A DNA stretch of 32,088 bases from a virus, in the IMG/VR virus record IMGVR_UViG_3300023178_000171, positions 1 through 32,088 of that record. The stretch is one strand, 5' to 3'. The notes beneath the pieces were generated by a model, which ran no database searches, was not told where the DNA came from, and saw only the letters and a list, made by a program, of their open reading frames with translations. The translations under genes and the position numbers were made by a program. Below are positions 1 to 31,641 of the stretch, piece after piece. Numbering within the stretch: position 1 is the stretch's first letter; the number at the start of each line of letters is the position of its first letter.

Positions 1-1203
1 ATAAGTGTCTGGAGCCATCATCATTTGATAAAGAACTTGATCGGGTGCTTCTCGTTGAGACCTAACAAATTTTCTAAGACTATTTAGGTCTGTACTTTCA
101 TTATATACTTTGCCTTTTTTCTTATCGTCGGCAAAGTTTTCTGCAAGTTCAGCAACTTCATCAGGCACTGCAAACTGCCATACAGTAGCTTTACCGTTCT
201 GTGCCATCATTGCAGTAAGTCTTGTGTTACCACCTACAAGTTCTTTGTATCCGTCACTGTAAACAGCAACGATAGGCATTTCAACATCGCCACTTTTTAG
301 TTGTGCTAATGCTCTTGCTTGTTTGTTTTTATCTAAACTTTTAAATGAGTTAGGGTCTGCTGCATCTGTGTTATTAATATCTTTAGCACTTTTAATAGTT
401 ACTGCTTTGCCCTTCTTAGCAAGTTCAATCCAAGCATCCTTGCCAATCTTTTGAAACTCTGGATAGCGGTTTGCTTCTTCCCATTCATAATCAAAGTTTG
501 GTTTTATAAATGCTTCGTTGGTTTTCTTACGTCCTTGGCAATGCGCCTTTTGCGAAAAGCCTTTAGGATTGTTGCAATTAATACTACGCTTATATTTCTG
601 ACTCCATTTTTCTTCTAGTGCTTTATATATTGCACCGGGCTCTTTTGGCGTTTCTTCTTCTATACTATGACCGCCTTCCATAAGAGCAAGTTCCATTGAT
701 GTAAAACGTTCGTTGTATGCTACATCAGTTGATGCTTTTGCTTTTGCACCGTGTGGATGTTTTGGATTAATACCAACAGGCTCACCGTTCATTAGTTGTG
801 ACATATCTACACTTTTACCTAAGGCATCTAACAGCTGGTGTAGCTTATCGTCTGGGTCGTATCCTCCAGATTCGTAGTCCGGTTTACCACGTACTTCTGT
901 ACGTCTGCCTGTTTCTGTATTTGTTATGTTTAGCACAAGCATCTTTTTATCACGTTCTAGTTGTAACTTATAACCTTCTGCTAGACCTAAATTAAATAAA
1001 ACGTTTGCATTTCCTTTGCTGTTTATTACAGGCGGAATGCCTTTTTTATCTAATTTATTTCCAAACTTTTTTGCTTGTCTTTGTGTTTCGCCTGGCTTTA
1101 CATCCACAGTCATACTTGTAATATATCTTGGATCTTTAGCCATCTTTTTATTGTGGGCTACAACACCTACTGCTGCTTCTTCTGCGAGGTCGCTCATTTT
1201 CAT
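1..1203 (-). CDS. ParB/sulfiredoxin-like domain protein, 3' end outside window
   Basis: The frame is open for 401 codons from the ATG at 1203 to the window edge, so the C-terminus is missing. The start forms an ATGA overlap with the stop of the upstream 71-residue gene, which supports it over the ATG two codons later. Near residue 323 there is VGGNTRLTAM, preceded by a segment reading MPIVAVYSDGYKEL. This resembles the ParB/sulfiredoxin-fold pattern in which a G-G-N/H-x-R-L box follows a beta strand. Around residues 207-224 is a Cys/His motif (INCNNPKGFSQKAHCQGRKK) that I associate with T4-like marine phage proteins of unknown role. The ParB-like fold is inferred from a short motif, and no nuclease or partition function is shown. 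It ends a run of genes for nucleotidyl-transfer-type proteins. Confidence 0.6.
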   Translation of the reverse strand, partial: MKMSDLAEEAAVGVVAHNKKMAKDPRYITSMTVDVKPGETQRQAKKFGNKLDKKGIPPVINSKGNANVLFNLGLAEGYKLQLERDKKMLVLNITNTETGRRTEVRGKPDYESGGYDPDDKLHQLLDALGKSVDMSQLMNGEPVGINPKHPHGAKAKASTDVAYNERFTSMELALMEGGHSIEEETPKEPGAIYKALEEKWSQKYKRSINCNNPKGFSQKAHCQGRKKTNEAFIKPNFDYEWEEANRYPEFQKIGKDAWIELAKKGKAVTIKSAKDINNTDAADPNSFKSLDKNKQARALAQLKSGDVEMPIVAVYSDGYKELVGGNTRLTAMMAQNGKATVWQFAVPDEVAELAENFADDKKKGKVYNESTDLNSLRKFVRSQREAPDQVLYQMMMAPDTY

Positions 1204-1415
1204 TTTTTGCGTCCTCTAAACTGCACAGGTCCTGTCATGTAAGGTTTCGAAAACCAAAGTTTAAACCAGTCTTCATCACCTGGTTTAAGTTTCATTGCTT
1301 TTTCTTTTTTCTTTAAAGCCGCAGCAGTTTCACTAGGATTCTCATCTACTTTGTATTCTGAGTAACCTTTGAATTCATTTATACCTGCTAATCTTTTTAA
1401 AGTTTCTATATCCAT
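1200..1415 (-). CDS. Small conserved phage protein, 71 aa
   Basis: A short charged protein starting MDIETLKRLAGINEFKGYSE and ending in a basic GRKK tail. The LKRLAGI-type N-terminus is a short motif I have seen in other T4-like marine phage proteins, but I know no function for it. The gene is coupled on both sides: its ATG overlaps the upstream stop (TAATG) and its TGA overlaps the next ATG (ATGA). This tight packing is the main evidence that it is real. There is no membrane segment or signal peptide. It may be a virion or head accessory protein by neighbourhood only. Confidence 0.6.
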   Translation of the reverse strand: MDIETLKRLAGINEFKGYSEYKVDENPSETAAALKKKEKAMKLKPGDEDWFKLWFSKPYMTGPVQFRGRKK

Positions 1416-2449
1416 TAGTCTGCGTTTCTTACTTGATACTTTATACCCAAGCGATCAAATAATTTACTTGCAGTTACCATAGATGTCAATGCTTGTTTAA
1501 TCTGCGGTAAGTAGTCTGAATTATTTTCTACTTTTTGCATAAATGCTTTTGCTTGATCTGGTTTAATAAAAATTAGTTTGCCGCTCCATGCAGCACCTTT
1601 TCTGTAAAAACTTAGGAAGTGTTCTTGGCCGTCTGACCTTGCTGCAATCCAATCTAGTACTTTTAATTTGTTTGGGTCTTGCTCTTTGATACTTGCATTA
1701 TCTGTTTTAGTACCAAATATTTCGTCAACTTCTTTATCTTTTTTCTTTTTCTTTTCGTCGCTGCTATGACCAAAAGTTTTATGTACAAGTTTATCTAATT
1801 TTTTGTGGAACTCGTCTTCTTCATCTGGTGTGGCATCTTCTTGTTGTCCGCCTAATGCTTTGTCTAATAGTTTTACAGCAACTTCTGCACCGCCACCGTA
1901 CATTAGTTTAGCAGCTTTTAATTTATCTTCATCGCTCATGTTAGGCCATGAAGCTCTAAGTTCGCTCGCACTTTTAATTGACATTCCGCTAAAATCAAAA
2001 TTGATTGTCGGACCGTATGCCATATAACCCATTTCGTCTGCTGTGTTTAAATCTTTACCTGTGTATGTACGCAGATATCCTGGCTCGCCGTTCTTTTTAG
2101 TTTGGTCTGGTAAAGGCTGTTCTGTTTTGTCTTTTTCGCTGCGTATAAAAACAAGTGCAGTGTTGTCGTCTAGTAGTCCAGCATATTCTCTATTGTTAAA
2201 AGGACTTTTAACTTGCATGAAGTTACTTTCAGGAACACCTGCCATAGCAGCAAGTTTCTTTTTAACATCAAACGGAAAAGGTCTAGTTGCAGTATCGTTT
2301 GTTGCTGCTACATATACATTAGACTGGCCAAATGTTTTTACTGCCCAATCATACAAACTTTTATGTCCAGGATGAAAAGGATGAAATCCGCCTGGCATAA
2401 CTGCTACTATTTTTCTTGCTTTTGCTTCATACAGTTCACGTAAAAACAT
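1415..2449 (-). CDS. HxGH-family nucleotidyltransferase (cytidylyltransferase/NMNAT-like)
   Basis: The N-terminal 170 residues look like an alpha/beta nucleotidyltransferase: GGFHPFHPGHKSL at 21-32 supplies the HxGH motif (H26-P-G-H29), and SIKSASELR at 157-165 resembles the second (S/T)xxxxR motif. The family transfers NMP onto a phosphate or base acceptor (NMNAT, PPAT and CTP:phosphocholine-type enzymes); the substrate cannot be read from the sequence. The second half (about 195-344) is a Lys/Glu-rich linker followed by an unrecognised domain. The N-terminus MFLRELYEAKARK resembles the T4 capsid-targeting peptides, with a possible prohead-protease site LYE/A. Start is ATG with AAGGAA upstream. 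It lies directly downstream of the KxDG protein, probably cotranscribed. Confidence 0.75.
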   Translation of the reverse strand: MFLRELYEAKARKIVAVMPGGFHPFHPGHKSLYDWAVKTFGQSNVYVAATNDTATRPFPFDVKKKLAAMAGVPESNFMQVKSPFNNREYAGLLDDNTALVFIRSEKDKTEQPLPDQTKKNGEPGYLRTYTGKDLNTADEMGYMAYGPTINFDFSGMSIKSASELRASWPNMSDEDKLKAAKLMYGGGAEVAVKLLDKALGGQQEDATPDEEDEFHKKLDKLVHKTFGHSSDEKKKKKDKEVDEIFGTKTDNASIKEQDPNKLKVLDWIAARSDGQEHFLSFYRKGAAWSGKLIFIKPDQAKAFMQKVENNSDYLPQIKQALTSMVTASKLFDRLGIKYQVRNAD

Positions 2450-2458
2450 TTTAATTCC

Positions 2459-3547
2459 TTAATTCGGCTGCCATCTAGTTCTAGGAACAAGTTTAGTTTT
2501 ACTTCCTAGTGCAACGTATCCTTCGCCGCCTTTTTCGCCTTTTGTATTTGCCTTAACGTCTGCATCAGCATCATCTAGTTGATCTATAATTTGATCTTTT
2601 GCAGTCATGATATCTTTAACTAATTTAAAAATTGCCGGAATAGCTTTTGGACTTTCTTCCGCCATTGCTTTTATTTTAGCCTGCTTGTTATTACTTACTT
2701 TTGATGTAGCCAGCCAATCAAAGAATCCTGAATCGATATTTTTTAACTGCTGTGTACGAGTCATGTGATTTACATATGTATAGATAATATTTTTCATATC
2801 ACTAAGGCCGGGTCTAGTTTCTAAAAAGTCATCTATAATTTTACCGTATTGTTTTGCATCCTGTCTTACATTACCAACTGCTCTAGTATCTACTTTAGGT
2901 TGGTGTGATACATAAGTTTGTCCAAGTACTACGGCATCATTACTATTCAATTCTTGTACGTCTTTGATTGGCGTACCTGAAGAACCTCCAAACTCATTAT
3001 ATTTGGTATGAACTACTACACCAACTTTTGAATTTTCTATACGTTTTCCAAGTTGACTGTCACTCTTAACTGTGTAGGTAACTTTGTTCGGAGTAAACTT
3101 AACTTCACCGTTAGAACTTGCAAAAGGTTTCCTAGGAGTGTATAATAAATCTCCGTATACAAACCCTCTAAAATCTGAAGGTGTAGCTGCTTCCATGATT
3201 TGAAATATTTCTGCCATGTCAGCACTAAACTCTTTTCTCCATTCTTCACCTTTTCCGGTGTTTAGAATAAAGTTAGATAAATCTTCCGGACTAGTACTTT
3301 TATTCCGCCCCCAACCGTTTTTGCCTACTAAAACAAATTGCCCGTCATCTTCGCGGCCCCAATATATTGTAGGGTTGCCGTCCCATTTGATTGCAACATC
3401 TCCTGCATCGCTTCCTAGTTTATCTAGAATATCAGCTGCTTTCTGAGCACCAGCAGAGCCGTCAATGAATACAAGATCTTCTAAATGATTGTATTCTCTA
3501 CCAACTTTGGCTTCAGTAAGAATTTGACGGAATTCTGTAAAACGCAA
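2459..3547 (-). CDS. DUF6267-like phage protein with ligase-type KxDG motif
   Basis: 362 residues starting at TTG (3547), with a strong AAGGAG nine bases upstream. No ATG would keep the conserved N-terminus. Residues 51-60 read VAIKWDGNPT, a K54-x-D-G box like motif I of covalent nucleotidyltransferases (DNA/RNA ligases, capping enzymes). FRGFVYGDLLY near 126-136 and GVVVHTK near 176-182 fall where motifs III/IIIa and IV would lie. From memory it matches the family annotated as DUF6267 in T4-like marine phages, which shares a (K)(W/Y)DG(N/A)P(T/A)I core. Function is unproven. The N-terminus MRFTEFRQILTEAK resembles a capsid-targeting peptide with an LTE/A cleavage site. Confidence 0.65.
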   Translation of the reverse strand: MRFTEFRQILTEAKVGREYNHLEDLVFIDGSAGAQKAADILDKLGSDAGDVAIKWDGNPTIYWGREDDGQFVLVGKNGWGRNKSTSPEDLSNFILNTGKGEEWRKEFSADMAEIFQIMEAATPSDFRGFVYGDLLYTPRKPFASSNGEVKFTPNKVTYTVKSDSQLGKRIENSKVGVVVHTKYNEFGGSSGTPIKDVQELNSNDAVVLGQTYVSHQPKVDTRAVGNVRQDAKQYGKIIDDFLETRPGLSDMKNIIYTYVNHMTRTQQLKNIDSGFFDWLATSKVSNNKQAKIKAMAEESPKAIPAIFKLVKDIMTAKDQIIDQLDDADADVKANTKGEKGGEGYVALGSKTKLVPRTRWQPN

Positions 3548-3548
3548 A

Positions 3549-3881
3549 TTAGTATGCTCCTTGCTTGATGTTTTCCATTTCTTCAGAGTATAGTCTCTGT
3601 ATAAGAGCTTGTCTATCCTCTAAATCAAATAAATCTGCAGGAGTTCTACCTACGTTAAATTTTTGACAATAGCCTTCACATGCTTTATCTACAACTGGAC
3701 CTAACATTTTGTTAGCATCAACTTTTTTACCTGCTTGGCATGCAGTTTTCATTTTGTCTACAACAGGGAAAAAACTTTTGCGATAAAACTGTGGATCATT
3801 ACGCATGAATACAGCAACATCATCTACTACATCAAAAGGAAGACTGTCGTCTACTGGTTGTGAAAATTCATCAATACGCAT
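3549..3881 (-). CDS. Conserved phage protein of unknown function, 110 aa
   Basis: I place the start at the ATG at 3881 (MRIDEFSQPVDD), four bases after the stop of the upstream gene. A longer reading back to 3953 would overlap that gene's conserved C-terminus by about 70 bases. The protein is soluble-looking and helical, with a Cys pair (AC..., ACEGYC) in the middle and no signal or membrane segment. I do not recognise a family. Its MRIDEF start resembles the N-termini of the two downstream nucleotidyl-transfer proteins but lacks an obvious protease site. It is probably cotranscribed with them. Confidence 0.6.
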   Translation of the reverse strand: MRIDEFSQPVDDSLPFDVVDDVAVFMRNDPQFYRKSFFPVVDKMKTACQAGKKVDANKMLGPVVDKACEGYCQKFNVGRTPADLFDLEDRQALIQRLYSEEMENIKQGAY

Positions 3882-9872: not shown

Positions 9873-10325
9873 TTATTTGAAAGGATTTAGCTTATCTAGT
9901 GTGGATTCTTGTGGAGCAGAATTTTGCGCCTCTACTTCTGCTTGTGCGCCTTTTATTTCCGCATTTGCATTTTCAAGTGCTTTTTCCGAGTCTTCATAGT
10001 AGTTTTGATAAGCAGCAATAATTGATTTTTGTTGCTGTAGCAAACGCATGATGTCGCTCATATTTAAAGATAGCGTTTCGTATCCGTCGTCTGTTAGTCC
10101 AATAAGTGCTGGATCTTTTTTATCTTTTAATAACTTCTCAAATACTTCTTGGTAGTTATCTTGTGTAATAACTATCCATTCTACGTCTTTTAAACGTAGT
10201 TGCTCAACTGGTGGTAATACTAAGTTAGGTTTATCAATCGGCTTTGCACTAATTTCTATTTGTCTAGGAGTTGTACCACATCCTACTAGTAATAGTGCAA
10301 CTAATGTTAGGGCTATAAATCTCAT
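9873..10325 (-). CDS. Lipoprotein, outer-membrane spanin candidate
   Basis: I start it at the ATG at 10325 (MRFIALTLVALLLVGC), an ATGA overlap with the upstream gene. A longer start at 10343 would put acidic residues before the signal. The lipobox LVGC places the lipid-modified Cys at 16. The mature 135 residues are hydrophilic, with a Pro-rich stretch (KPNLVLPPVEQLRL) and a long helix from about 95 to 140. The pairing with a single-pass coiled-coil inner-membrane protein directly upstream is the classic two-component spanin arrangement that fuses inner and outer membranes in the last step of lysis. The WIVITQDNYQEVFEKL core is a conserved marine-phage sequence from memory. Confidence 0.72.
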   Translation of the reverse strand: MRFIALTLVALLLVGCGTTPRQIEISAKPIDKPNLVLPPVEQLRLKDVEWIVITQDNYQEVFEKLLKDKKDPALIGLTDDGYETLSLNMSDIMRLLQQQKSIIAAYQNYYEDSEKALENANAEIKGAQAEVEAQNSAPQESTLDKLNPFK

Positions 10326-10819
10326 AAGTTCTTCCTCTTCCAAGCATCTGATTGAATATTTGGATCAAAGTTTGGATTTGCATCTCTCCAACACTCTGGA
10401 TTAATTTCGCTTGGTTTTGTTGCTGACAGTTCTGACTCTGTCAAAGGTGCCCCACTTAAAATTTCTAAACATCGTTGTGCATTTTTAGTTGCGCCGTTTA
10501 GAACACGTTCTGTTAGCCCTGGCTTAGCAGTTGCCGCGGCACCTATATCGTGTCGCGACAATCTATTTTCTAAAGCTCTATTACGATCGCTTATTGCTTG
10601 CCATTCGTTTTGTAGTCTAGCGTTTTCTGCTTGCATACTTTGAAATGCAGCCTGTTGTGCCTTAAGAGCTTCTTCATTGGTTTGTACGGCTGTCTCCAAC
10701 TTAGCATTATTTTCTGTTAGGATAGCAATACGTTCTTGGGTATCTTGATAATAGAGATACCCTGCTCCTGCCATTCCTGTCATTAAAAAGAAAAATACGA
10801 TTGCTAACTTAGTACCCAT
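10322..10819 (-). CDS. Inner-membrane spanin candidate (Rz-like)
   Basis: 165 residues with an N-terminal signal-anchor (about 4-24, LAIVFFFLMTGMAGAGYLYY) and a long coiled coil (about 27-90, with ILTENNAKLETAVQ and ENARLQNEWQAI). The C-terminal globular part has Cys at two sites (AQRCLEIL, NPECWRD). This N-in, periplasmic coiled-coil layout is typical of Rz-like i-spanins, which bridge to an outer-membrane lipoprotein. The next gene is exactly such a lipoprotein and overlaps by four bases (ATGA). It starts six bases after the endolysin stop codon. Confidence rests on topology and context. Confidence 0.72.
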   Translation of the reverse strand: MGTKLAIVFFFLMTGMAGAGYLYYQDTQERIAILTENNAKLETAVQTNEEALKAQQAAFQSMQAENARLQNEWQAISDRNRALENRLSRHDIGAAATAKPGLTERVLNGATKNAQRCLEILSGAPLTESELSATKPSEINPECWRDANPNFDPNIQSDAWKRKNL

Positions 10820-28857: not shown

Positions 28858-28865
28858 TATTTAGC
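28858..28865 (-). promoter_or_regulatory. Possible late promoter box GCTAAATA
   Basis: GCTAAATA (one mismatch to GATAAATA) 18 bases before the ATG at 28839, overlapping the stop codon of the subtilase gene. The position fits the series but the match is imperfect. Confidence 0.45.
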
Positions 28866-31641
28866 TAACAATTATTCTTCCGTGTGCATCATTAAAGAGA
28901 CTGCTTTGATAATAGAATATGCCTCTTGCTCTAGGCCTAAATGTAATAGTTCCTGATGTTGCACCTTGACCTATACTATCGCCGACTTGATTATCTGTTC
29001 CCGGACCTTGTACATCTTTCATGTAAATTGGACGCCCTGCACTACTTACTGTAAATAGTATTGTATCCCCGTAATCTATGTTAATGTCTATGTTATTACC
29101 AAAGATACCCGTTGTTCTATCTTGTCCGGCAACTTCAAACGCATTATCTCCTTGTTTAGATATAAAGATATCAAATTGTACACCTGGAGGTCTAGCAGGT
29201 GATGCATCTAATAAGTCTACTTCAAGGAATTCACTTCTACCATCTAGTTCTAGTTGCATTACTTCCGAACCTTCTGTTGTTAAATCTCTTGTAGTTGTTA
29301 TAGTTGTTGTTGCAGTATTGTCATTTACTATAAATGATCCTGTTAATGATTCGTTTATATCACTTGCACTGATTCCTGTAATTGTATAAGGAACACTAGT
29401 TCCGTCAAACACATCAGTTGTTGTAAGTGTAAATGTGACACCAAAGCCTTCATCAATTTCGGCATCACTGACAGAAAGTGAATAAGTTGGTGTTTTACTA
29501 GTATCTGTTACAGATACAAACACTGGATTAGCAAACGGGTCATCTAAAGAAAATGTAATTAGTTCAGTACCTTCAGTTAGTTGATCTTCTCTAAGTGTTA
29601 TGCTTACACTCCCTGCTCCGCTTACAAGATTTATATTACCTGTAATACTACCTGAGCTTAAATCAAATTCATCTATGCCAGTAATTGTATAACCTAGTAA
29701 TCCGTCTTCTACGTTTTTCGTAGATAGTGTAAATGTTACAGTGTCACCTTCGTTGATAACATCAGCACTCTTAGTAAGTGTGTACACCGGTCTTTGATCT
29801 GTAGTACTTGTGTCGTTAATTTGTATACCAATTTCGGCTTTGCCGTTATCTAATGTTAGCACAAAATTTTGATCACCTTCTGTTGTCAAATCAACTGTGG
29901 TAGGAAATGTAAGACTTGCTGTATTACTATTAACAACAAAATTACCAGTTAGTGAAACACCGTCAATGTCTTCAGATTCGATTCCTGTAATTGTATAAGG
30001 AACACTGGTTCCGTTTGCAACATTTTCAGTTGTTAAGGTAATTGTAAAAGATTGTCCTTCGTCTACTTCTAAAACATTCTTAGTAAGTGCATACGTTCTG
30101 TGAGTTGGGAAACTAGACGATAATAAAATATTACTGTTATAAATGTTGTATGCAAACTTATTTTCGCCGCCCCAAAGGCTTCTAGAATTTCCATAATCTG
30201 TATCAAGCCCTGTGCTTGTGAGTTTATTATCTTGCACATTAGACATGAACCATGTTTTAACTTGCGCAGGAGTAGCACTTGGATTGAGTCCTAAGTACAA
30301 TGCGATCATTCCTGCAACTTGTGGAGCTGCCATACTTGTACCGCTTATGTTTGCTTGCTGGAAGAAAGAACTTCCTTCCCCTTGTTCATAGTCTGCTGTA
30401 GCAAAATCTGCAACAACACTTGCTGCACTCATAATATTTGTTCCTGGTGCAAATACTGTTGTGCCAGGCCCTGAATTACTCGATTGTGCTTTTTGTTCTG
30501 CTCCTACACCGATAGTAGAATCAACGTTATTTACAATAAACGCTTCGTCATCATAAGGAGACATACCTCGGTGATAAAACCTAGTATCACCGTAGAAACT
30601 ACTATTCCAACTGTTATCATAATCATCTCCGCCGGGTACATCTACTTTGTGAAAATCATTACCCGATGCAATTACAACATGTACACCTTCGTCAATAAGT
30701 TCTTGCACATCAACGTCAACACTGGCTACTCTATAAGGATGATTAAAAGATACACCATCAAAGCTACCTGTCATGCCTCTATTAGTATCTCTATTAATAC
30801 CTGTCCAAGGAACTCCTCTATAAGTGCCTCCAGTTACACCTATGTACCTGCTAAAAAATCCCCAACTCATATTAATCACAGTAGGTCTTTTGTATCCTGT
30901 GCTAGGTTCAATAGGCTTATTACGATGCCATAATTTCATTAAGTCAAAAGCAGTTGTATAAGAAATACCTACAGAAGGATCATTAGATCCTTCTAAACCT
31001 GCAACTTTCATAGAAAAAATTTGTGCGTCTTTTGCCCAACCAAAATAAAGTCCTGTTGCAATGCCAGCAACGTGTGTTCCATGTCCGCTGTAATCGTTAT
31101 AAAATCCCGAAGGCTGAGTGCCTGATACTCCGGCAGCAGAATACCAGTTTATATTTTGTACTCTGCTATTGCCTTCTCTATCAGCAAATTCTGGATGTGT
31201 AGAATAAATTCCACTATCCATTATAACTACATCTACACCAGTACCTTTTATTGTATAGTTATATCCACCGTCTACGGTATTACCGGTATAAGGATCATCT
31301 ACTTCGTTTAAGCGTCTTAATCCCCAGTTTACAAACGCACCGCTATCGGAAGTTGTTTTAGTAAAGTCGCTTTCTTGCACAGCATGACGTCCTATAAAAA
31401 TGTCATCTCTGTCTAAAGGATTTATCTCTACAGCGTAAACTCTGTCATCTTCACGCAATGCTGCTGCTTCTTCATCTGTAAGCATGTAGTGAGTATTTCT
31501 GTAACTGCCTTCTCGAGGATCTGCAATGTCAACAGCTCTGTTTGGAATCGCTCCTGCACCTGTTGATGCAATCATTTCTGCATCAAATGCAGCATAATCA
31601 ACGTTGCGGTTTAGACTAACTACGTATTCTTTTTCGCTCAT
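28861..31641 (-). CDS. Virion-associated subtilase with prodomain, Calx-beta repeats and cupredoxin-like tail
   Basis: 926 residues. Residues 1-75 (EYVVSLNRNVDYAAF, LTDEEAAALREDDRVYAVEI) resemble an inhibitor-I9 prodomain. Residues ~130-455 are a peptidase S8 domain with an intact triad: D142 (VIMDSGI), H187 (SGHGTHVAG), S436 (SGTSMAAPQVAG), plus the oxyanion Asn N328. Three Calx-beta-like repeats occupy about 516-813. The last ~105 residues fit a phage cupredoxin-like domain, but the usual copper ligands look lost (R870, S913 and F916 where H, C and H are expected). No signal peptide. Likely a tail adhesin or envelope-processing enzyme. AAGGAG lies five bases before the ATG. Confidence 0.88.
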   Translation of the reverse strand: MSEKEYVVSLNRNVDYAAFDAEMIASTGAGAIPNRAVDIADPREGSYRNTHYMLTDEEAAALREDDRVYAVEINPLDRDDIFIGRHAVQESDFTKTTSDSGAFVNWGLRRLNEVDDPYTGNTVDGGYNYTIKGTGVDVVIMDSGIYSTHPEFADREGNSRVQNINWYSAAGVSGTQPSGFYNDYSGHGTHVAGIATGLYFGWAKDAQIFSMKVAGLEGSNDPSVGISYTTAFDLMKLWHRNKPIEPSTGYKRPTVINMSWGFFSRYIGVTGGTYRGVPWTGINRDTNRGMTGSFDGVSFNHPYRVASVDVDVQELIDEGVHVVIASGNDFHKVDVPGGDDYDNSWNSSFYGDTRFYHRGMSPYDDEAFIVNNVDSTIGVGAEQKAQSSNSGPGTTVFAPGTNIMSAASVVADFATADYEQGEGSSFFQQANISGTSMAAPQVAGMIALYLGLNPSATPAQVKTWFMSNVQDNKLTSTGLDTDYGNSRSLWGGENKFAYNIYNSNILLSSSFPTHRTYALTKNVLEVDEGQSFTITLTTENVANGTSVPYTITGIESEDIDGVSLTGNFVVNSNTASLTFPTTVDLTTEGDQNFVLTLDNGKAEIGIQINDTSTTDQRPVYTLTKSADVINEGDTVTFTLSTKNVEDGLLGYTITGIDEFDLSSGSITGNINLVSGAGSVSITLREDQLTEGTELITFSLDDPFANPVFVSVTDTSKTPTYSLSVSDAEIDEGFGVTFTLTTTDVFDGTSVPYTITGISASDINESLTGSFIVNDNTATTTITTTRDLTTEGSEVMQLELDGRSEFLEVDLLDASPARPPGVQFDIFISKQGDNAFEVAGQDRTTGIFGNNIDINIDYGDTILFTVSSAGRPIYMKDVQGPGTDNQVGDSIGQGATSGTITFRPRARGIFYYQSSLFNDAHGRIIVS
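29203..30096 (-). repeat. Three Calx-beta-like protein repeats with near-identical DNA block
   Basis: The subtilase gene encodes three tandem repeats (about residues 516-614, 620-715, 720-813) sharing Y-x-L-x(5-9)-EG-x(3)-T-x-T-L and YTITGI...LTGxF patterns. Repeats 1 and 3 also share a 35-base DNA block, at 29980-30014 and 29371-29405, with one mismatch and 609 bases apart, implying recent duplication or recombination. Confidence 0.8.

What the first reader, a model, noticed from the sequence alone, without database searches (positions are those of the whole stretch)
2400..3547. Two nucleotidyl-transfer proteins carry T4-like capsid-targeting N-termini
The HxGH nucleotidyltransferase starts MFLRELYE-AKA and the KxDG protein starts MRFTEFRQILTE-AKV. 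T4 internal proteins and Alt begin with a short peptide such as MKTYQEFIAE-A, cleaved by the prohead protease gp21 after (L/I)xE before A/G. Both proteins here show an amphipathic N-terminus ending LxE/A. The inference is that both enzymes are packaged in the capsid and injected with the DNA to act on the host at once. The pairing of an HxGH enzyme with a ligase-like KxDG protein could then be an injected RNA- or NAD-directed modification system.
Basis: partly seen in the sequence, partly recalled or inferred. Interest (0 to 1): 0.78.

Follow-up and report, generated by a model that had tools for sequence, protein, structure and literature searches.

The report
Phage enzymes with capsid-packaging leader peptides
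Two neighbouring enzymes of a marine T4-like virus of bacteria begin with a short detachable tag of the kind phage T4 uses to load proteins into its head, so both are probably carried in the virus particle and delivered into the host cell with the DNA.

Summary
In detail: MFLRELYE|A (HxGH enzyme) and MRFTEFRQILTE|A (KxDG enzyme). The bare motif [LIVMF]xE[AGS] near an N-terminus is no more than chance genome-wide; comparative evidence carries the case. In 33 distinct HxGH N-termini P1 Glu and P3 Leu/Ile are invariant; in 20 KxDG relatives M1, R2, L10 and E12 are invariant while leader length varies. The leader is a detachable module: cyanophage-type loci carry it on HxGH (47/47), never on KxDG (0/49); loci related to phage DLP_6 carry it on KxDG (~62/62); the window's clade on both. 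In the DLP_6 group the conserved positions are those mapped experimentally in T4's capsid-targeting sequence (4, 7, 8, 10), and cleavage would recreate the N-terminus of leaderless homologues. Published mass spectrometry places HxGH homologues in virions of three T4-like cyanophages; all three bear the leader. Large relatives encode a gp21-like S77 protease, and their capsid protein has a matching predicted site (YLSE|S). KxDG carries RNA-ligase motifs; HxGH has a PPAT/NMNAT fold; they are fused in S-PM2. Packaging is likely (~0.82). The pair's function is unproven; an RNA-repair or adenylyl-transfer kit is my best guess.

The parts
2426..2449 (-). HxGH enzyme leader MFLRELYE (residues 1-8), predicted gp21-type propeptide; cut predicted between E8 and A9
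   Evidence: P1 Glu 33/33, P3 Leu/Ile 33/33, P1' Ala 27/33 in distinct homologues; low-confidence helix 2-7 in the AF2 model
1415..2425 (-). HxGH nucleotidyltransferase body, with variable mosaic C-terminus after about residue 200
   Evidence: PF01467 at cut-off; fold match PPAT Z 11.4, NadD about Z 10, Foldseek NadD E 3e-4; alignment A2
2363..2374 (-). HPGH catalytic motif (residues 26-29)
   Evidence: invariant in A2
3512..3547 (-). KxDG enzyme leader MRFTEFRQILTE (residues 1-12), predicted gp21-type propeptide; cut predicted between E12 and A13
   Evidence: M1, R2, L10, E12 invariant with variable spacer; T4 register met; AF2 helix 4-10 then disorder 10-17 before the domain
2459..3511 (-). 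KxDG enzyme body (DUF6267), ligase-like covalent nucleotidyltransferase with a helical region at residues 224-326
   Evidence: PF19782 E 9e-30 over residues 20-358; invariant K54, D56, G57, D133, E342, G343, V345, K352; RNA ligases are the top fold matches, Z 5-5.9
3377..3388 (-). KWDG motif I (residues 54-57), proposed adenylylated lysine K54
   Evidence: K, D and G invariant in 55 homologues
3556..3562 (-). ribosome-binding site AAGGAGC upstream of the TTG start of the KxDG gene
   Evidence: sequence
1200..1415 (-). 71-aa neighbour starting MDIETLKRLAGINEF, sharing an LKRLAG motif with the scaffold C-terminus of relatives; possible head-associated protein

Best explanation
Both N-termini are T4-type capsid-targeting propeptides. 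During head assembly the leader docks the enzyme into the prohead core; the phage's gp21-like S77 protease then cuts after (L/I)xE, leaving mature enzyme in the head to be ejected with the DNA. Shown by computation: presence, conservation, modular gain and loss of the leader, cognate protease and matching capsid-protein site in relatives. Shown by others: presence of leader-bearing HxGH homologues in virions of three cyanophages. Inferred: cleavage, packaging and injection of these two proteins. As to what they do inside the cell, my best guess is a preloaded nucleotidyl-transfer kit: the KxDG protein as an RNA-ligase-like enzyme that seals or adenylylates RNA (for instance tRNA cut by host defence), and the HxGH protein as an adenylyltransferase serving the same reaction or topping up NAD+. 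That functional step is inference, at about 0.4; the confidence given below is for the packaging claim.
For: Conserved P1 Glu and P3 Leu/Ile in both families. Leader occurs as a module that changes owner: cyano-type loci HxGH 47/47 and KxDG 0/49; DLP_6-like loci KxDG about 62/62 and HxGH mostly none; window clade both. In DLP_6-like KxDG only the positions equivalent to T4 CTS 4, 7, 8 and 10 are conserved (hydrophobic 55/55, F/Y 51/55, L/I 54/55, E 54/55) and the residues between them vary; mutational work on IPIII found targeting at 4 and 7 and processing at 8 and 10 (PMC9026906). Cleavage would give xKNTHMEHLED, the N-terminus of leaderless cyanophage homologues, M[AS]KNTHLEHLED. Virion proteomes: S-SCSM1 ORF91 MKSFLQFLKE|A, S-SZBM1_140 MRFRQFIIE|A, S-CREM2 gp154 MKNFSSFLTE|A, whereas the neighbouring leaderless S-SZBM1_141 is not named in the published paper's MS table. 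The register picks out only about one annotated gene of S-SCSM1, the NMNAT. S77 protease and gp23 in G001, G006 and G008; G001 gp23 site YLSE|S. Other leader-bearing proteins of relatives are virion structural families, one with a weak hit to 'internal head protein' over residues 1-29. Another HxGH subfamily in G008 also bears MKIRSLFE|A. Fusion KxDG-HxGH in S-PM2.
Against: No proteomics for this phage or its close clade. The HxGH leader is only 8 residues and lacks the hydrophobic residue at -3. The S-PM2 fusion, S-RSM4, P-HM2 and S-CAM4 carry no leader on either enzyme. S-CBWM1, not T4-like, has a virion NMNAT without a leader. The authors of the S-CREM2 study note that such proteins could be contaminants. 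The DLP_6-like set was partly gathered with a pattern from the leader itself. The window is a 32-kb fragment in which no head-protease gene was seen.
Confidence: 0.82

Rival explanations
1. The leader is a retained amphipathic helix that docks the enzymes on the scaffold or on a partner protein and is never cleaved; the Glu is a binding contact.
For: AF2 gives a short helix at KxDG residues 4-10; targeting and cleavage are separable in T4.
Against: Variable spacer between the conserved start and the conserved LxE, disordered junction, P3/P1 conservation, and a match to the predicted cut of the capsid protein.
Confidence: 0.1
2. The resemblance is coincidental: short N-terminal amphipathic sequences with LxE are common.
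For: The bare motif is not enriched at N-termini genome-wide.
Against: Conservation in 33 HxGH and 20 KxDG relatives, the same register in two other groups, and 3 of 3 virion-detected T4-like HxGH homologues carrying it.
Confidence: 0.03
3. For function rather than packaging: the pair supports NAD+ metabolism (an NMNAT-like HxGH enzyme restoring NAD+ at entry, KxDG using or remodelling it) rather than RNA repair.
For: Foldseek top hits are NadD enzymes; phage NAD+ synthesis enzymes are known countermeasures (PMC9503650); cyanophage papers name the homologues NMNAT.
Against: PPAT scores as high or higher, so the substrate is unassigned; the partner has RNA-ligase motifs, and in 43 of 90 related KxDG loci an unassigned NTase-like gene with an SSGDLDLNTD motif lies close by, in loci without HxGH.
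Confidence: 0.35

Closest known systems
T4 internal proteins IPI-III and Alt with capsid-targeting sequences cut by gp21
   Same: N-terminal leader of 8-12 residues, hydrophobic register (KxDG), (L/I)xE cut site, S77 protease in relatives, unrelated cargo domains
   Different: Cargo is a ligase-like enzyme and a HxGH nucleotidyltransferase rather than an ADP-ribosyltransferase or small inhibitors; the HxGH leader is shorter and lacks one register position
Virion-associated NMNAT/cytidylyltransferase of cyanophages S-SCSM1, S-SZBM1 and S-CREM2
   Same: HxGH motif and an N-terminal leader; MS-detected in virions
   Different: Different HxGH subfamily (FGRFNPPxxGH versus GGFHPFHPGH); the DUF6267 neighbour in S-SZBM1 is leaderless and S-SCSM1 has none detectable
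T4 RNA ligase 2 / Trl1 / Naegleria RNA ligase superfamily
   Same: Motifs I KxDG, III GD, IV EGxV, V KxV and best fold matches (Z 5-6)
   Different: No detectable sequence similarity to solved ligases; extra helical region; activity unknown
Polyvalent and NAD+/ADPr effectors packaged in myovirus heads (Iyer and co-workers, PMC5512222 and PMC9503650)
   Same: Head-packaged enzymes thought to act at once on entry; variable C-terminal mosaics
   Different: Those surveys infer packaging from fusions or gene neighbourhood; here a cleavable leader is the evidence

Membership tests
T4-type capsid-targeting sequence | N-terminal propeptide of about 6-20 residues ending in (L/I)xE | tested here: met
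   8 and 12 residues; P3 and P1 conserved
T4-type capsid-targeting sequence | Hydrophobic residues at CTS positions 4 and 7 (register -6 and -3 from P1), KxDG leader | tested here: met
   F6 and I9 relative to E12; DLP_6-like relatives 55/55 and 51/55
T4-type capsid-targeting sequence | Same register, HxGH leader | tested here: not met
   E5 at -3; F2 at -6. The HxGH leader works like a CTS at the cut site but is at best a shorter variant
T4-type capsid-targeting sequence | Cognate gp21-like protease and gp23 in the same genome | tested here: met
   In relatives G001, G006 and G008; cannot be tested in the 32-kb window fragment
T4-type capsid-targeting sequence | Leader removed and mature protein present in virions | not testable with these tools
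   Homologues found in virions by MS; their N-termini are not reported
Covalent nucleotidyltransferase (RNA ligase) superfamily | Motifs I (KxDG), III, IV and V | tested here: met
   Invariant K54, D56, G57; G132, D133; E342, G343, V345; K352 in 55 sequences
Covalent nucleotidyltransferase (RNA ligase) superfamily | Ligase fold | tested here: inconclusive
   Top VIA-align rows are RNA ligases but Z is 5-5.9; Foldseek E above 0.3
Covalent nucleotidyltransferase (RNA ligase) superfamily | Lysyl-AMP formation and strand sealing | not testable with these tools
   needs enzyme assay
HxGH nucleotidylyltransferases (PPAT, NMNAT, CTP transferases) | HxGH motif and nucleotidylyltransferase fold | tested here: met
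   HPGH invariant; Z 11.4 to PPAT, about 10 to NadD
NMNAT | NMN/NaMN specificity | not testable with these tools
   PPAT, NadD and NadM folds score alike

The most novel reading that the evidence does not exclude
T4-like phages of the sea carry a preloaded RNA-repair kit in the head: an RNA-ligase-like enzyme (DUF6267) and a HxGH adenylyltransferase, injected at entry to mend or modify host RNA before any phage gene is expressed, with the packaging tag passed between the two partners in different phage lineages.
Probability: 0.3. Interest if true: 0.82.

Novelty: new variant of a known kind. Interest (0 to 1): 0.64.

Why it matters
Virion proteomics of cyanophages repeatedly finds an NMNAT-like enzyme whose presence had no explanation other than 'carried or contaminant'. 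A detachable T4-type leader explains it, predicts which homologues are packaged, and adds a widespread unannotated protein (DUF6267, RNA-ligase-like) to the probable injected set. It gives a sequence rule, testable on existing spectra, for finding head-delivered effectors in abundant marine T4-like phages.

Tried and rejected
Bare-motif enrichment across five genomes gave no N-terminal excess, so single-sequence motif counting was dropped as evidence. Stricter leader expressions gave 8 seen against about 1 expected and 15 against about 4 for the T4 register: supportive but modest. Sequence searches of solved structures with either alignment gave no true match (the ribosomal-protein hits fall in a lysine-rich stretch). 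No KxDG-HxGH fusion was found in the fetched loci; it was then found in S-PM2. A role of the leaderless cyanophage DUF6267 as a passenger packaged by its leader-bearing partner was considered and not supported: S-SZBM1_141 is not named in the published paper. No Pfam nucleotidyltransferase match was found for the SSGDLDLNTD neighbour, so its Pol-beta-like reading rests on the motif only. A PHROG scan of 55 DUF6267 members did not bring out the internal-head-protein family through the leader.

Full report
What is there. On the minus strand the window encodes a HxGH nucleotidyltransferase (1415-2449, 344 aa, MFLRELYEAKARK...) and, just upstream in transcription, a KxDG protein (2459-3547, 362 aa, TTG start, MRFTEFRQILTEAKVGREY...). 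Pfam places the first at the cut-off of CTP_transf_like from residue 18 and the second in DUF6267 from residue 20, so both leaders lie outside the recognised domains. The window is a 32,088-base virus fragment.

Chance. The bare motif [LIVMF]xE[AGS] is no commoner in the first 17 residues than further in, in the window or in five related genomes. The case therefore cannot rest on this sequence alone.

Conservation. In 33 distinct N-termini of window-type HxGH proteins the P1 residue is Glu in all, P3 is Leu or Ile in all, and P1' is Ala in 27; several neighbouring positions are much more variable. P3 Leu is written with many different codons, so the amino acid, not the DNA, is kept. In 20 KxDG relatives M1, R2, L10 and E12 are invariant while the spacer between MR[FY]xEF and LTE and the junction after it change length.

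A detachable module. I compared three groups of loci. In cyanophage-type loci DUF6267 begins directly M[AS]KNTHLEHLED without a leader (0 of 49) and the HxGH neighbour starts M[RK][FY]xxF[IL]xE|A followed by a linker (47 of 47). In loci related to Stenotrophomonas phage DLP_6 the reverse holds: DUF6267 starts MxxFxx[FY][LI]xE|xKNTHMEHLED in about 62 of 62 (two of them judged by eye) and HxGH is mostly leaderless. In the window's clade both carry it (entries scored false in that clade only because four residues follow the Glu or a longer insert does). Cutting after the Glu in the DLP_6 group would yield xKNTHMEHLED, the natural N-terminus of the leaderless homologues. The DLP_6-like set was found with six patterns, one of them from the leader, a mild bias. 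In G008 a HxGH protein of a different subfamily sits beside KxDG and also has MKIRSLFE|A.

Register. In T4 IPIII, targeting depends on residues 4 and 7 and processing on 8 and 10 of the capsid-targeting sequence, and gp21 cuts after L/I-x-E (PMC9026906). In 55 distinct DLP_6-like KxDG leaders exactly those positions are constrained (hydrophobic 55/55; F/Y 51/55; L/I 54/55; E 54/55) and the rest vary. The window KxDG leader fits the register shifted by two; the window HxGH leader fits P3 and P1 but not position -3.

Virion evidence from the literature. [quoted passage not shown] All three begin with a leader: MKSFLQFLKE|A, MRFRQFIIE|A, MKNFSSFLTE|A. In S-SCSM1 the register is met by essentially one annotated gene, the NMNAT. 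In S-SZBM1 the adjacent leaderless DUF6267 was not named. Against this, S-CBWM1, which is not T4-like, has a virion NMNAT without a leader, and the S-CREM2 authors caution about contamination.

Machinery. Relatives G001, G006 and G008 encode an S77 prohead protease and gp23. The gp23 of G001 has NTRKYLSE|SATSG at the place where, from my knowledge of T4 gp23, its cut would lie; the cyanophage capsid proteins have FLAE|A, ILTE|A and LLTE|A. P1' Ser or Ala therefore suits these proteases (inference). Other leader-bearing proteins of the relatives fall in virion structural families, one with a weak match to 'internal head protein' over residues 1-29 (E 0.008).

The enzymes. AlphaFold2 gives the KxDG protein at mean pLDDT 86 with a leader helix 4-10, disorder 10-17, then the domain. 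The best structural rows are RNA ligases (Trl1 Z 5.9, T4 Rnl2 5.7, Naegleria 5.7, trypanosome REL1 5.6), low but coherent, and motifs I, III, IV and V are invariant in 55 homologues. HxGH is PPAT/NMNAT-like (Z up to 11.4), with a highly variable mosaic C-terminus. The two are adjacent or near in cyanomyoviruses and DLP_6 and fused in S-PM2d138 (591 aa with both KWDG and FGRFNPPTTGH). In 43 of 90 window-clade KxDG loci a protein with an SSGDLDLNTD motif lies nearby and in 28 a HxGH gene, never both. In G005 HxGH and KxDG lie about 100 kb apart, so adjacency is not obligatory.

Conclusion. Packaging through a T4-type cleavable leader is the best explanation (about 0.82). Delivery of both enzymes together is predicted in this clade; in the other groups mainly one partner carries the tag. 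The substrate and purpose remain open; an RNA-repair or adenylyl-transfer role at entry is my best guess.

Noticed in passing
window 1200-1415 (-); G001 gene at 86583-87671 and 41204-42775: An [IML]K[RK]LAG[ILV] motif opens the 71-aa neighbour of HxGH and closes the gp22 scaffold and another head-family protein of relatives (4 seen against 0.4 expected in G001); possibly a second prohead-docking motif.
   Followed up: partly
L007 KxDG N-terminus; G005 100720-101094: A Cys-rich cassette (DWVCGKCYADPCVCES) lies between leader and body of one KxDG protein and a similar one follows the leader of an unrelated small protein.
   Followed up: no
window-clade loci such as L059, L061, L070: KxDG genes have either a HxGH gene or a gene with SSGDLDLNTD (perhaps a Pol-beta-type nucleotidyltransferase, MILKE|GGN start) nearby, never both in the fetched loci.
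   Followed up: partly
L217 26013-26726 (S-CREM2 gp156): An MS-detected virion protein of S-CREM2 near the cytidylyltransferase matches the nucleotidyltransferase domain NTP_transf_2 (E 3e-4).
   Followed up: partly
L003 HxGH protein residues 210-694: C-termini of HxGH proteins are a mosaic (163-800 aa), including membrane-like segments and a basic Cys tail KGKSRPGRVKRSGASCNGSV...HWCANMKSG shared with other proteins of these genomes.
   Followed up: no
window 28861-31641 (-): A 926-aa ORF with a subtilisin-type catalytic triad (DSGIYS, GHGTHVAGI, GTSMAAPQ) beside long structural-looking ORFs (read by eye).
   Followed up: no
window 9873-10819 (-): A probable two-part spanin: a membrane-anchored coiled-coil ORF followed by a lipoprotein-type ORF, next to an endolysin-like gene with a peptidoglycan-binding end (read by eye).
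   Followed up: no
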